NCBI GenBank assembly: GCA_003695725.1
Contig: RFHX01000305.1
Location: 1-14,032 of the forward strand
Direction of reading: 5' to 3'
DNA: 14,032 nt
Source: J061 sp003695725 [NCBI: Candidatus Schekmanbacteria bacterium]
Lineage (GTDB): Bacteria; Schekmanbacteria; GWA2-38-11
Both the position numbers and the translations under genes were made by a program. Positions 3,586 to 13,914 of the stretch are shown here, piece by piece (positions within the stretch are counted from its first letter, which is position 1; the number at the start of each line of letters is the position of its first letter). The notes beneath the pieces are model-generated. The model made no database searches. It had not been told where the DNA came from and saw only the letters and a program-made list of their open reading frames with translations.

Positions 3586-4668
3586 ATGGCTAAATCCAAA
3601 GTCGCTGTTTTAAAGACAACACCTGAAAGAGTAATCGAAGATTATGGCAAACTTCTTGAAATGGCAGATTTCGAAAACTTCCTCGACAAAGATAAGCCTG
3701 TAATCTTGAAAGAAAACATATCATGGCATTTTCTTTTTCCTGGCGCAAATACAACGCCTTGGCAGCTCGAAGGGTCAATAAAAAAATTAAAGGAGAAGGG
3801 CTATAATGATTTAATAGCTGTCTCTAATGAAACAGTGGTAACCAACGCCTTCAAAGGTGAAAAACTTAATAAATTTACACCTGTATTTGAAAAATACAAT
3901 ATTCCTGTTAAGTACAACTTTCTCCCGCAGGATATGAAATGGATAAGATACGAACCTAAATCAAAAATGCATGTTCTTCATAAAATTTATCCTAAAGGAA
4001 TTTACCTTCCTGATTTTTTCTTCGATAAAAATATTCTCCACCTTCCAACAGTAAAAACACATATCTATACAACAACAACAGGTTCAATGAAGAATGCTTT
4101 CGGTGGATTATTAAATACACGCAGGCATTACACTCATAGTGAAATCCACAAGACTCTTGTTGATTTATTGAAAATTCAGAAGGAAATCCACTCAGGAATC
4201 TTTGCGGTAATGGATGGGACAACCTGTGGCAATGGTCCCGGCCCTCGTACAATGTATCCTGTTGAAAAGGATTTGATTCTTGCAAGCGGAGACTGTGTGG
4301 CAATCGATGCTGTTGCAAGCAAAATGATGGGATTTGATCCAATGAGTCTCGAATATATCAGAGTCGCTCATGAAGAGGGCTTGGGAACCGGAAGAATCGA
4401 AGAAATTGAAATTGTGGGAGAAGATATTTCAGGGCTCAACTTTGGTTTCTTCGTAGGCGACAATATGGCAAGCCGAGTAGGAGATGCGCTTTGGTTCAGC
4501 CCGCTGAAAGTATTTCAAAAGCTCTTTTTTCATACTCCTCTCGTATATCTCTTCGTATTTGGTTCATTCTTTTACCATGATTATCTTTGGTATCCAACCT
4601 TTGGAAAAAGTAGAGTCAATAAATGGCTCAATGAATCAAAGTGGGGCAAACTTTTTCAGCAGTATTAG
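3586..4668 (+). CDS. DUF362 family protein of unknown function, coupled to dxs
   Basis: A 360-residue DUF362 protein; no biochemical function is established for this subgroup, and I do not assign one. Family blocks seen: LKENISW at 41-47; the core signature LPTVKTHIYTTTTGSMKNAFGG at 153-174, abbreviated here as LPxxKTH...TGSMKNxFG; DGTTCGNGPGPR at 210-221; and GDCVAIDAVASKMMGFDP at 235-252. Many DUF362 proteins carry a ferredoxin domain with CxxCxxC motifs; this one has only two cysteines (214 and 237), so it is unlikely to hold a [4Fe-4S] cluster of that type. Beyond the domain there is a C-terminal extension with a hydrophobic stretch at about 312-329 and an aromatic-rich tail, which may contact the membrane. 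GGGAGG lies 5 nt before the ATG and the gene begins 11 bp after dxs, so it is almost certainly in the isoprenoid operon. It ends directly against the convergent nadA. Confidence 0.85.
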   Translation: MAKSKVAVLKTTPERVIEDYGKLLEMADFENFLDKDKPVILKENISWHFLFPGANTTPWQLEGSIKKLKEKGYNDLIAVSNETVVTNAFKGEKLNKFTPVFEKYNIPVKYNFLPQDMKWIRYEPKSKMHVLHKIYPKGIYLPDFFFDKNILHLPTVKTHIYTTTTGSMKNAFGGLLNTRRHYTHSEIHKTLVDLLKIQKEIHSGIFAVMDGTTCGNGPGPRTMYPVEKDLILASGDCVAIDAVASKMMGFDPMSLEYIRVAHEEGLGTGRIEEIEIVGEDISGLNFGFFVGDNMASRVGDALWFSPLKVFQKLFFHTPLVYLFVFGSFFYHDYLWYPTFGKSRVNKWLNESKWGKLFQQY

Positions 4669-6262: not shown

Positions 6263-7417
6263 ATGGATATTGCTGAATTTAACGAAAATAAGCCCGGCAG
6301 GATTATAAAAGCTTTGCAAGGATATGAAGCTTTTGTTCCCAATCCACTGCCGCCTGATATTAAACTTAGCTGGAGTTTAGTAAAGGAGATTTCAGATGCC
6401 GAAAGAAATTTAAGCCGCCTTGAAAGCACCGTAAATTTTCTACCTAATCCAAAATTACTCATCAATCCCTTCGTCAGAAGGGAGGCTGTCCTTTCAAGCC
6501 AAATTGAAGGGACACAGGCATCTCTTTCTGACCTTTTCTATTTCGAGGCACTGAAAACCACGGAAAAGGATCTTCCAGATGTAAAAGAAGTATCCAATTA
6601 TGCCTTTGCACTGGAGTCAATCTTCGAAGAAAAAAACAATACAGAATTAACTCTGGAATTTTTAAAAGAACTTCACAAAAAACTTTTCAGAAATACAAAT
6701 AAAGGATTCAATAGTCCGGGAGAATTTAGAAAATCTCAAAATTGGATAGGTCCTAAGGGATGCACCTTAAATGAAGCCTTTTTCGTGCCTCCGCCTCCTG
6801 AAGAGATGAAGAATGCATTAAAGGAATTTGAAAAATATCTTATAACACCTTCACATCTGCCTGCGCTTATAAATATTGCTCTTATCCATTATCAATTTGA
6901 AACAATCCATCCCTTTAATGATGGCAACGGAAGGATAGGCAGAATTCTTACGGTAATGCTTCTTCATAAATACGGGTTGTTATCAAAACCGCTTCTTTAT
7001 TTAAGCGCTTATTTTGAAAAAAACAGAAGTGAATATTACCGATTGCTTCTTGCAGTCAGCCAAAAGGGAGAATGGGAAAAGTGGATTAGATTTTTTCTCC
7101 GAGGCATTTCAGAGCAATCAAGAGATGTAGTTGAAAGGATAAACCTCCTTCTTTCTATTAGACAGCGGTATAGAAACAAGTTGCAGGCAGTCCGTTCTTC
7201 TGCTCTTTTGTTAAAACTCATCGATGACCTTTTTGCAAATCCTGCAATAACAGTCAGTCGAGTAGCTGAATCCTGCAACATTACACCGCGCGCCGCACAA
7301 AAAAATATCGACAAACTTTTAGCTGAAGGTATTTTAAAAGAAATTACAGGCAAAAAGAGAAATCGGGTCTATGTTGCTTCAGAAATAGTCAGAATAATCG
7401 GTGAAAATAAGTTATAA
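6263..7417 (+). CDS. Fic-family protein AMP-transferase with N-terminal inhibitory motif and C-terminal winged helix
   Basis: Fic enzymes usually transfer AMP from ATP to hydroxyl groups of target proteins. This 384-residue protein has the standard three-part layout: a Fic N-terminal region with the inhibitory motif S78-S-Q-I-E82-G83, matching (S/T)xxxE(G/N); the Fic core with a complete active site HPFNDGNGRIGR at 216-227 (catalytic His216, phosphate-binding Asn/Arg loop); and a winged helix-turn-helix at about 310-380 (TVSRVAESCNITPRAAQKNI then RVYVASEIV). The inhibitory motif N-terminal to the active site makes it a class II, self-inhibited Fic. The length and order resemble the Shewanella oneidensis Fic protein. 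No antitoxin-like ORF lies beside it. It has no ribosome binding site, sits alone between two minus-strand housekeeping operons, and follows a promoter with operator-like repeats, suggesting self-control through the winged helix (inferred). The target is unknown. Confidence 0.93.
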   Translation: MDIAEFNENKPGRIIKALQGYEAFVPNPLPPDIKLSWSLVKEISDAERNLSRLESTVNFLPNPKLLINPFVRREAVLSSQIEGTQASLSDLFYFEALKTTEKDLPDVKEVSNYAFALESIFEEKNNTELTLEFLKELHKKLFRNTNKGFNSPGEFRKSQNWIGPKGCTLNEAFFVPPPPEEMKNALKEFEKYLITPSHLPALINIALIHYQFETIHPFNDGNGRIGRILTVMLLHKYGLLSKPLLYLSAYFEKNRSEYYRLLLAVSQKGEWEKWIRFFLRGISEQSRDVVERINLLLSIRQRYRNKLQAVRSSALLLKLIDDLFANPAITVSRVAESCNITPRAAQKNIDKLLAEGILKEITGKKRNRVYVASEIVRIIGENKL

Positions 7418-11295: not shown

Positions 11296-13914
11296 ATGAC
11301 AAAAAATTTGAAAACTTTTTTGCTCAAAAGAGTCTTAGTACATATTGCTTTAATCGTCCTTCTAATTACATTCTTCCTCTATATAGTTAGCCAAATTTAC
11401 ACACTAAATATGGATGAGCTAAAAAAGGAATATACAAACCGACAGCTTCTCATAACCTTTCAATCGGCAAAGCAGATAAAAACTTATTTTGAAGATTTGA
11501 GCAGAGAATTCAGTCTTATCCATACAATTGTCAAGATGGGACAGATGGCTATAAAGAAAGATGCAGATTTAGTATTGGACACAGCATCCTATCTCGGAGA
11601 GGTGGAGAGGGAGGAAATTGATACCTATTTTGCCGCTGATGGGAACGGGATTTTAATTTGGAATTCTGAAAATAACAGCAAATTTGCAATCGAAATTCCA
11701 GCTAAAATCCTCAACACATTAAAAACAAACAAAAAATTGAATTACTTTCTCTTTAGAGGCTTGAAGGATAAAAATGGGAATATAAGTAGTGAAAAAATAA
11801 TTTTTCTGAAGCCCTTTTTCGACAATCCAAAAAATCCCGAAAAATTGACGAGAATTGCAGGTGCTGTAATAAACCTGAAAAGTCTCTTTGATAAATTTGT
11901 AAAGCCAATAATGGCTGACAATGATATGTCAGCTTGGGTTATTTCTTCTGAAGGAATAATCCTTTATCTTCCAAGACACGAAAAGATGGTAAGCAACAGC
12001 ATATTCAAAACAGATGAAAGCTGTTTCAAATGCCATAAAAATTTTAAAACGGAAAATAAAATTCTAACCAACAATCAGTTCAAGGGGTCCTATTTTATTA
12101 AAAGACGCTCAATGCTTGTATCATCATCAACCTCCGATAATCCCGGCTTATCCTTCAAAGTGGTTACAAGCACCCCTCTCGCTTCTGTGGCGAGACGCGC
12201 ACGATTGAGCTATCTCTATATGATTATTCTTTCAGTATCAGTAATTCTTGCCTTAATAATTTCAGGAGGATACACAATCAGGGTAAACCGCAAAAGGGCG
12301 AACGCCCTTCGCGAAAAGCTCCGAGATCAGGAAGAAATCCTCTACTTGAAAGAATTCAATGAAAATATCATAAGGAATCTGCCTGTTGGAATAGTAGTCA
12401 TTGATAAGGAAAGAAAAGTTCAGACAGTAAACAATGAAATTATAAGAATGGGAGAAAAGACAGGGCTCAACTGGTCATATGATATGCTGGGAAAAGATGT
12501 AGCAGAAACAATGCCTGAAAATTTAAGGGAATCTGCCATTTCAAACTACAATTATGTTTTAAAAGAAGGCAATCAGTATCTGAACCCAATGATTGTCTTT
12601 AAAGGCAGCAAAGGAAAGCTTTTGTGTTCTGTAAGAATAAGTCCTCTGAGGGATGCAAAAAACAATATCGTTGGTGCAATCATAATGCGTGAAGATATAA
12701 CTGAACAGAAGCGCCTCGAAGCTGAAATAAAGGAAACGAAAGATTACTTGGAAAAAGTCTTTGAAGCATCTGTTGACGGTATCATAGTTACAGACGAAAA
12801 AGGATACATAAGAATGGCTAACGATGCTGTATGTAAAATGCTTGGATATGAAAAGGAAGAACTCATTGGGATGTATACAACCGAACTTTCCACGAAAGAA
12901 TCTCAGCACATTCAGGACCAGCTGAACATATTGGAAACACTGAGGAAAGAGGGCAAAAGCGCCCCTACTGAAGTCACTTACAGGCGTAAGGACGGTACCT
13001 TTATCCCTATCGAGCAAAGCACAGCTTTTGTTTATGATGACAAAGGGAACCTTGTTGGCGCAGTGGCTGGAATGAGGGATCTCACAGAAAAAAAGAAAGC
13101 TGAAGAAAGACAAAAAGAACTTCAACAGCGACTCATTCATTCTGAAAAACTCGCCTCTATTGGCCGCCTTGCAGGAGGAATCGCCCACGAAATCAACAAC
13201 CCTTTAAGCGGTGTTATAACAAATCTTGGGATGATAAAAGATATAGTTGTGCCTGATCCGGGAGAAATTCTCAAAGAATGCGAGCAGGCAAATGCCGGTG
13301 CGGAATGCACTAAAAAGATGGCAGAGTTCTATGAAAAATATCTCAAGCTTGAAAAAAAGAGACAGCGCCTTCTTGAAACTGCCTATAAGGGAGGAGATAG
13401 ATGTAAAAAGATTATCCAAGACCTTCTCGTCTTTGCACGGCCATCGGCTAAACGAGAAGAAGAAGAAATAAATTTAAATACCTGCATCGAAGAAAGTCTC
13501 GAAATCATTCACAATCAGCTCATTTTGAACAATATAACTGTAAATAAAAAACTGAGTGAAGGATTAAAGCCCATAAAAGGAGTCAAAAAAGAGCTTGATC
13601 AAATTTTTCTCAATTTCTTTGTAAATGCCTTTCATGCTATGAAACCTGATGGAGGTGAATTGTCAATCGAAAGTTTCAATGACAACAGTAATGTAGTAGT
13701 GAAAGTTTCAGATACGGGCTGTGGAATGACTCCTGAAGTGATGAATAAAATCTTTGACCCCTTCTTTACCACAAAAGATGTGGGAAGCGGCACAGGTTTG
13801 GGACTTTCTATTGTCTATGAAATAATACAAAATCACAATGGTACAATCGATGTAAAAAGCAAAGTCAATGAAGGCACCACATTTACCCTAAAATTTCCTG
13901 TAGCACAGAAATAG
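11296..13914 (+). CDS. Membrane sensor histidine kinase with CxxCH (c-haem) extracytoplasmic domain and two PAS domains
   Basis: An 872-residue sensor kinase. Order of parts: membrane segment about 13-34; extracytoplasmic Cache-like domain about 35-304, holding CFKCH at 243-247, a c-type haem-binding motif; second membrane segment about 305-327; coiled linker; PAS about 355-470 (NLPVGIVVIDKERKV); PAS about 481-597 (ASVDGIIVTDEKGYI); DHp domain with phospho-accepting His631 in GGIAHEINNPLSG; and an ATPase domain with N-box Asn777, DTGCGM (806-811), FDPFFTTK (820-827) and GTGLGLSIV (832-840). The motifs fit the NtrB/ZraS-like group. Between His631 and the RCKKIIQDLLVFAR block (702-715) the spacing is about 30 residues longer than usual, with Cys662 and Cys671 at the predicted hairpin tip. 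The ribosome binding site is weak (AGG 11 nt upstream). No response regulator follows in the window. The ligand is unknown; redox or a haem-bound gas is plausible. Confidence 0.93.
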   Translation: MTKNLKTFLLKRVLVHIALIVLLITFFLYIVSQIYTLNMDELKKEYTNRQLLITFQSAKQIKTYFEDLSREFSLIHTIVKMGQMAIKKDADLVLDTASYLGEVEREEIDTYFAADGNGILIWNSENNSKFAIEIPAKILNTLKTNKKLNYFLFRGLKDKNGNISSEKIIFLKPFFDNPKNPEKLTRIAGAVINLKSLFDKFVKPIMADNDMSAWVISSEGIILYLPRHEKMVSNSIFKTDESCFKCHKNFKTENKILTNNQFKGSYFIKRRSMLVSSSTSDNPGLSFKVVTSTPLASVARRARLSYLYMIILSVSVILALIISGGYTIRVNRKRANALREKLRDQEEILYLKEFNENIIRNLPVGIVVIDKERKVQTVNNEIIRMGEKTGLNWSYDMLGKDVAETMPENLRESAISNYNYVLKEGNQYLNPMIVFKGSKGKLLCSVRISPLRDAKNNIVGAIIMREDITEQKRLEAEIKETKDYLEKVFEASVDGIIVTDEKGYIRMANDAVCKMLGYEKEELIGMYTTELSTKESQHIQDQLNILETLRKEGKSAPTEVTYRRKDGTFIPIEQSTAFVYDDKGNLVGAVAGMRDLTEKKKAEERQKELQQRLIHSEKLASIGRLAGGIAHEINNPLSGVITNLGMIKDIVVPDPGEILKECEQANAGAECTKKMAEFYEKYLKLEKKRQRLLETAYKGGDRCKKIIQDLLVFARPSAKREEEEINLNTCIEESLEIIHNQLILNNITVNKKLSEGLKPIKGVKKELDQIFLNFFVNAFHAMKPDGGELSIESFNDNSNVVVKVSDTGCGMTPEVMNKIFDPFFTTKDVGSGTGLGLSIVYEIIQNHNGTIDVKSKVNEGTTFTLKFPVAQK

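What the first reader, a model, noticed from the sequence alone, without database searches (positions are those of the whole stretch)
12022..12036. CxxCH haem motif in the outer domain of a histidine kinase
The sequence shows Cys243-Phe-Lys-Cys246-His247 between two membrane segments, on the predicted extracytoplasmic side where c-type haem is attached. Sensor proteins with haem c in a periplasmic PAS/Cache-like domain are known from Geobacter and related bacteria. This kinase probably senses redox state or a haem ligand such as NO, CO or O2 (inference). Candidate distal ligands in the domain include His76, Met81, Met84, Met206, Met211 and His228.
Basis: partly seen in the sequence, partly recalled or inferred. 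Interest (0 to 1): 0.6.

Follow-up and report, generated by a model that had tools for sequence, protein, structure and literature searches.

The report
Double-Cache sensor kinase binding haem c
A bacterial membrane sensor kinase carries, in its outer sensing domain, a conserved attachment site for haem in a kind of domain (double Cache) where I found no such cofactor described, so the cell probably uses a covalently held haem outside the membrane to sense redox state or a gas such as nitric oxide.

Summary
Window 12022-12036 encodes C243-F-K-C246-H247 between two membrane segments of an 872-residue histidine kinase (11296-13914, +); these are the outer domain's only cysteines. All 47 rows read (window included) that score 120 bits or more with the family profile have CxxCH at this site; 35 rows read that score 77 or less, ordinary dCache_1-like sensors, lack it. 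The genome has System II haem-attachment genes (ResB plus CcsA). A haem-c sensor kinase is therefore well supported, though not shown biochemically. With the motif masked, its profile matches non-haem dCache sensors almost perfectly and sCache_heme hardly at all, so haem was probably acquired separately. By score the family is common in one unnamed phylum (86 of 395 genomes); 28 of 40 loci examined have an NtrC-type regulator directly downstream. Two structure predictions failed (pLDDT 32 and 35), so haem placement, ligation and the sensed signal remain inference.

The parts
11296..13914 (+). sensor histidine kinase, 872 aa: TM1 - double Cache with CxxCH - TM2 - PAS - PAS - HisKA - HATPase_c
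   Evidence: ORF and translation; Pfam PAS, HisKA, HATPase_c over cut-off; dCache_1 only weakly in this member (E 0.064) but over the cut-off in 3 of 4 relatives tested
11308..11412 (+). first membrane segment (residues 5-39)
   Evidence: hydropathy
11413..12198 (+). extracytoplasmic double Cache domain (about residues 40-301)
   Evidence: alignment A1 and Pfam dCache_1 in 9 of 10 members at E up to 1, best 3.6e-19; dCache structures such as 3lib and 3c8c among the weak PDB hits of A1
11986..11988 (+). Met231, proposed distal haem-iron ligand
   Evidence: M in 45 of 47 haem-type rows, in 1 of 35 rows without the motif
12022..12036 (+). CFKCH haem-c attachment motif; His247 = proximal ligand (inferred)
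   Evidence: present in all 47 rows read that score 120 bits or more with A3, absent from the 35 read that score 77 or less
12199..12285 (+). second membrane segment (residues 302-330)
   Evidence: hydropathy
12361..13104 (+). two cytoplasmic PAS domains (about residues 356-469 and 485-603)
   Evidence: Pfam PAS_10, PAS_9, PAS, PAS_4
13162..13905 (+). HisKA and HATPase_c kinase core (residues 623-870)
   Evidence: Pfam

Best explanation
This is a two-component sensor kinase whose extracytoplasmic dCache_1-type domain carries one covalently bound c-type haem in its membrane-proximal Cache module. Haem is attached to Cys243 and Cys246 by the genome's System II (ResB/CcsA) machinery. His247 is the proximal iron ligand and Met231 the likely distal one. 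A change at the iron (oxidation, or displacement of Met231 by a small ligand such as NO) would release Met231, shift the segment before TM2 and, through TM2 and the two PAS domains, change kinase activity; in relatives the likely partner is an NtrC-type sigma-54 regulator. Supported by sequence comparison: domain type, conserved motif, conserved Met231, maturation genes, partner type in relatives. Inferred: that haem is attached, the ligation and the switch. A redox switch is somewhat more likely than a dedicated NO sensor.
For: Invariant C, C, H at the site across 10 rows, nine of them of 17-44% identity to the window, and in all 47 rows scoring 120 bits or more; Met231 in 45 of 47 against 1 of 35; ResB (E 4.5e-79) next to Cytochrom_C_asm/CcsA (E 4.7e-59) in the own genome; 483 CxxCH-pattern sites against 73 for the reversed pattern in the own genome, any frame; 3 of 4 related kinases over the dCache_1 cut-off; NtrC-type regulator directly downstream by sequence pattern in 28 of 40 loci, with REC and sigma-54 AAA+ by Pfam in 3 of 3 tested (Fis-type HTH over its cut-off in 2 of the 3). 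Precedent in another family: in GSU0935 Met60 binds the reduced haem and leaves on oxidation, and NO or CO displaces it (PMC8396549, passages); a signalling sCache_heme protein binds NO tightly and forms no stable O2 complex (PMC12889525, parts 1-3 of 6 of the text).
Against: No spectrum, no structure: both AlphaFold2 runs gave pLDDT 32 and 35. The window's protein matches dCache_1 only at E 0.064. Two rows (L021, L022) lack the Met. The window's kinase has no readable response-regulator partner: the contig ends 118 bases after the stop codon, and the his-linked orthologues L128 and L129 show none directly downstream. Met231 lies where other dCache rows mostly carry F, I, L or V, so it could be a core residue kept by descent. 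The family profile was built from rows with the motif, so score and motif are not independent; the tree without the motif columns separates the two groups with 2 changes, not 1.
Confidence: 0.72

Rival explanations
1. Same haem-c double Cache, but a dedicated nitric oxide sensor: reduced haem binds NO, Met231 is displaced, and redox state as such is not the signal.
For: A signalling-fused sCache_heme protein behaves as an NO sensor and not an O2 sensor (PMC12889525); NO displaces the axial Met60 of the Geobacter sensors (PMC8396549).
Against: Those domains belong to another family. No NO-related genes were sought in this genome. Some haem-type loci lie near genes with several CxxCH, which fits respiration and redox control as well.
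Confidence: 0.3
2. The domain is a PF11845 (sCache_heme) module fused behind a second Cache module, i.e. a member of the known Geobacter/Tll0287 family.
For: Unmasked profile comparison gives modest scores (87.0% with the two CxxCH in register, 45.3%); both are Cache-related and both carry CxxCH.
Against: No PF11845 hit at E up to 1 in any of 10 members. With the motif masked the score falls to 8.0%, while masked haem dCache against dCache rows without the motif stays at 99.9%, E 2.9e-37. In Tll0287 one conserved stretch, ending the match, follows the motif; here three strands seem to follow (my reading; the model has pLDDT 35).
Confidence: 0.07
3. The cysteines hold no haem: a CxxC disulfide/thiol switch or a bound metal (for example zinc), with His as a further ligand.
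For: Two Cys and one His alone cannot distinguish these by sequence.
Against: The following His is invariant in the 10 rows of A1, the 13 of A3 and the 23 of A5, as haem c needs and a CxxC thiol switch does not; the companion Met suits haem rather than zinc (recalled chemistry); the genome is rich in the CxxCH pattern and has System II.
Confidence: 0.1

Closest known systems
sCache_heme / DUF3365 / Tll0287-like (PF11845): Tll0287, GSU0582, GSU0935
   Same: Extracytoplasmic Cache-superfamily sensor with CxxCH, about half of them fused to kinases, MCPs or cyclic-di-GMP enzymes (PMC12889525); Met as distal ligand in one GSU0935 haem (PMC8396549)
   Different: Single Cache, other sequence family (no PF11845 hit; 8.0% with the motif masked); motif apparently in a later loop; in GSU0935 Met60 lies 80 residues before the first Cys, here Met231 lies 12 before it
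dCache_1 (PF02743) double Cache sensors, whose known ligands are mostly amino acids (PMC4822843 passage)
   Same: Same domain by profile (9 of 10 members at E up to 1; 3 of 4 kinases over the cut-off; 99.9% profile match with the motif masked)
   Different: The 35 non-haem rows read have no CxxCH; F, I, L or V stands at the Met231 place in 27 of them
DcrA of Desulfovibrio vulgaris (MCP with periplasmic haem c, redox/oxygen)
   Same: Haem c in a periplasmic sensor domain, redox or oxygen signal (PMC8396549 passages)
   Different: A chemotaxis transducer; its domain family was not compared here

Membership tests
dCache_1 (PF02743) | profile match over Pfam's cut-off | tested here: inconclusive
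   window protein E 0.064, 13.2 bits against 45; three of four related haem-type kinases tested score 66.7-76.9 bits, the fourth (L133) 18.8
dCache_1 (PF02743) | two tandem Cache modules between two membrane segments | tested here: met
   domain of about 260 residues between segments 5-39 and 302-330; dCache_1 matches span 237 residues in L138 and 254 in L140; by length and profile, not by structure; L005 has a shorter distal half
sCache_heme / Tll0287-like (PF11845) | match to PF11845 | tested here: not met
   no hit at E up to 1 in 10 of 10 members; the family does occur elsewhere in this genome (G000:C168)
sCache_heme / Tll0287-like (PF11845) | CxxCH motif | tested here: met
[quoted passage not shown]
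   domain length fits a double Cache; what follows the motif argues for another loop, but the models have pLDDT 32-35
c-type haem protein | CxxCH on the extracytoplasmic side and a haem attachment system in the genome | tested here: met
   topology by hydropathy; ResB + CcsA
c-type haem protein | covalently bound haem in the protein | not testable with these tools
   needs purified protein
two-component histidine kinase | HisKA with phospho-acceptor region and HATPase_c | tested here: met
   PF00512 44.1 bits, PF02518 93.1 bits, both over cut-off

The most novel reading that the evidence does not exclude
A second, independently evolved haem-c sensor domain in the Cache superfamily ('dCache_heme'): an ordinary dCache_1 sensor gained CxxCH plus a paired methionine in the loop and helix between strands 2 and 3 of its membrane-proximal module, by rewriting residues in place rather than inserting a long piece, and then spread as the input of mostly sigma-54-linked kinases in at least four phyla, mainly one large one. 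Two origins at different places of one fold would mean that the Cache pocket is readily converted to haem sensing.
Probability: 0.55. Interest if true: 0.68.

Novelty: new variant of a known kind. Interest (0 to 1): 0.52.

Why it matters
The February 2026 preprint that defines sCache_heme calls it the first known Cache domain with a covalently attached cofactor (PMC12889525). A haem-c double Cache of separate descent would extend that to the double Cache sensors, give a testable signal (redox or NO) to kinases that profile libraries list only as dCache/PAS kinases, and supply two natural experiments in turning a ligand pocket into a haem pocket.

Tried and rejected
Structure: AlphaFold2 on the whole domain with one relative (collected, pLDDT 32) and on the proximal module (collected, pLDDT 35); too poor for any fold search, so none was run and no haem was placed.

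PDB search with the single protein gave one hit at E 2, taken as chance; with the profile A1 16 weak hits, several to dCache structures, the top one a ribosomal protein. NCBIfam has no matching family for four haem-type sensor regions: weak hits far below cut-offs in three, none in the fourth.

Rejected: membership in PF11845; His228 and the other named ligands. A genomic link to multihaem cytochromes was kept only as weak support: 13 of 38 haem loci against 4 of 37 arbitrary stretches (p 0.026) and 0 of 20 loci of dCache kinases without the motif (p 0.002); the threshold of three motifs was mine, and those 20 loci may largely be one orthologous group (not tested). The arbitrary stretches were fixed positions in four one-contig genomes and the start of contig 1 in 20 others. 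Rows dropped: duplicates L017-L020 and L078 and the broken copy of G004 (L010/L024, whose neighbouring piece carries CYQCH); L045 (no envelope); L125 (partial) before the tree; L046 never entered (no A3 hit); of 20 sCache_heme loci two (L159, L166) gave no usable ORF and were not in the profile. In one search, two of 40 haem and three of 40 arbitrary stretches under 9 kb were not counted. The careful tree did not finish; the quick tree was used. One search read minus-strand loci in the wrong frame and was redone.

Full report
The observation. The window holds one ORF at 11296-13914 (+) of 872 residues. Codons 12022-12036 encode Cys243-Phe-Lys-Cys246-His247. Hydropathy puts membrane segments at residues 5-39 and 302-330, and the charges flanking them put the domain between on the outside (inference). 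These two cysteines are the only ones in residues 34-308; about 0.0007 CxxCH would be expected there by chance. The cytoplasmic part has two PAS domains, HisKA and HATPase_c, and no HAMP was listed.

What the domain is. The window protein alone matches dCache_1 (PF02743) only at E 0.064. An alignment of ten rows (A1: the window and nine relatives of 17-44% identity to it) has just six invariant columns: P173, G220, M231, C243, C246 and H247. Nine of its ten members match dCache_1 at E up to 1, best 3.6e-19, and none matches PF11845. Three of four kinases from related loci score over the dCache_1 cut-off (76.9, 76.4 and 66.7 bits against 45; the fourth, L133, 18.8). The A1 profile finds 16 PDB sequences weakly, among them 3lib and 3c8c, which are listed as dCache_1 structures in PMC4822843 (passage), and 4wy9 at E 0.0017 (a double Cache from recall); its top hit, a ribosomal protein at E 0.001, must be chance. 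So the domain is most likely a double Cache domain, divergent in this species.

Conservation against relatives that lack the motif. A1 was run against 386 genomes of 327 genera, and 77 had a match; A3 (13 rows of the membrane-proximal module, all with the motif) against 395 genomes of the phylum of G263, and 136 had a match. I read ORFs from the fetched loci, which are the best matches and a choice of the weaker ones, not all. After removing duplicates, 47 rows (the window included) have CxxCH at this site and 35 have none. The split follows the A3 score: every row at 120 bits or more has it; the rows without it score 30-77 bits; the only other rows in that range (L010 and L024, 30.1 bits) are the downstream ORF of the broken G004 copy, whose CYQCH lies in the piece before it. 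Since A3 was built from rows with the motif, score and motif are not independent, but the gap is wider than I would expect from these few columns alone (inference). By my count from the table, 86 of 395 genomes have a match at E up to 1e-33, and the next best is 3.5e-24; I read haem-type loci of 51 of those 86, all with the motif. In the wider sample, 8 of 386 genomes match A5 (23 rows of the same module) at E up to 1.2e-37 (G000-G004, G100, G263, G366), the next best at 8.9e-19. In two further phyla asked, 2 of 4 genomes (that of G100) and 1 of 1 (that of G004) have it.

Distal ligand. Common descent could account for part of this, but in A5 few other positions are kept so well: invariant are one G and the C, C, H; W, L, F, E, P and this M are nearly so.

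Descent. With the CxxCH letters masked, the haem-type proximal module matches the module of the 35 non-haem rows at 99.9%, E 2.9e-37. The masked profile against 18 sCache_heme sequences, also masked, gives 8.0%, and sCache_heme against the non-haem rows 8.8%. Unmasked, sCache_heme against the haem type gives 45.3% (87.0% with another alignment, where the two motifs fall in register), so nearly all the similarity is the motif itself. A quick tree of 81 rows without the motif columns needs two changes of state, one origin not excluded, against a mean of 26.5 for shuffled labels, 0 of 500 as low. Against a single clean clade, two haem rows (L012, L014) group with 14 non-haem rows at support 84, several branches are long, and the careful search was not finished. 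The haem rows thus lie among dCache-type sensors; one gain is likely but not shown.

Place of the motif. In the alignment with the double Cache structure 4wy9 the motif falls after the stretch GtLlyhp and before three stretches that I read as strands; the model of the proximal module shows the same order, but at pLDDT 35, so this is a hint. In Tll0287 (5B82) one conserved stretch follows the motif up to the end of the match. The preprint places the sCache_heme motif in an insertion between strands 3 and 4 (PMC12889525, parts 1-3 of 6 read). I infer different loops and a separate acquisition.

Machinery. PF01578 is found once in the own genome; it lies next to a ResB-family gene, and Pfam confirms both (ResB E 4.5e-79; Cytochrom_C_asm E 4.7e-59): the pair known as System II (name recalled). 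The CxxCH DNA pattern occurs 483 times against 73 for the reversed pattern, in any frame. A separate PF11845 protein lies on another contig; 21 of 98 genomes searched have that family.

Neighbourhood. The kinase stands divergent from hisB in the window, L128 and L129 (PF00475 in all three) and in L130 (hisB by eye): four of the four genomes of the order in hand. The contig ends 118 bases after the stop codon; directly downstream come an LVIVD-repeat protein in L128 and a gene on the other strand in L129, no regulator. In the 40 haem loci taken, the next gene downstream is an NtrC-type regulator by sequence pattern in 28 and a lone receiver domain in 1; Pfam confirmed REC and sigma-54 domains in three of three tested, the Fis-type HTH over its cut-off in two. 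Genes with three or more CxxCH lie in 13 of 38 haem stretches, 4 of 37 arbitrary stretches and 0 of 20 stretches around dCache kinases without the motif.

Literature. PMC12889525 states that sCache_heme is the first known Cache domain with a covalent cofactor; one sentence of its discussion calls its P. azotoformans protein a 'dCache protein', which I take for a slip, since everywhere else in the parts read it is an sCache_heme protein. PMC8396549 (passages) reports Met60 bound in the reduced and released in the oxidised form, and its displacement by NO and CO. PMC3460858 (passages) says ten G. sulfurreducens periplasmic sensor domains have haem-c motifs; I could not check whether any is a double Cache. 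PMC3831638, PMC4822843, PMC2825233 and PMC8199190 were seen as passages only. Eight searches of open-licence papers showed, in their listings (capped), no paper that I could recognise as describing haem c in a dCache domain; subscription papers are not held.

Reading. Most likely a haem-c redox sensor in which oxidation or a small ligand releases Met231 and moves the segment leading to TM2. Haem attachment, ligation and signal are inference; motif, domain, conservation and maturation genes rest on the calls cited.

Noticed in passing
G000:C168:4917-5321 (L153): The same genome also carries an sCache_heme (PF11845) protein, open frame 322 aa, E 1.5e-26; 21 of 98 genomes searched have the family.
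   Followed up: partly
G000:C250:138-464 (L013) and G000:C237:25346-25612: Short ORFs (157 and 103 aa) matching the N-terminal half of the same sensor; the first runs towards the start of its contig. The genome may have more paralogues than the assembly shows.
   Followed up: no
G000:C15:158-4153: 23 CxxCH-pattern sites on one strand within 4 kb, probably a very large multihaem cytochrome or a run of them.
   Followed up: no
L133 and L135: Haem-type paralogues with an NtrC-type regulator directly downstream stand near genes with 7-12 CxxCH motifs in two genomes of the order.
   Followed up: partly
L010 (G004:C5): A haem-type copy broken by an in-frame stop and apparently lacking the middle of the domain, motif CYQCH kept; it could be decay or an assembly fault.
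   Followed up: no
window 6263-7417 +: Fic/DOC family protein with Fic_N.
   Followed up: no
window 3586-4668 +: DUF362 protein.
   Followed up: no
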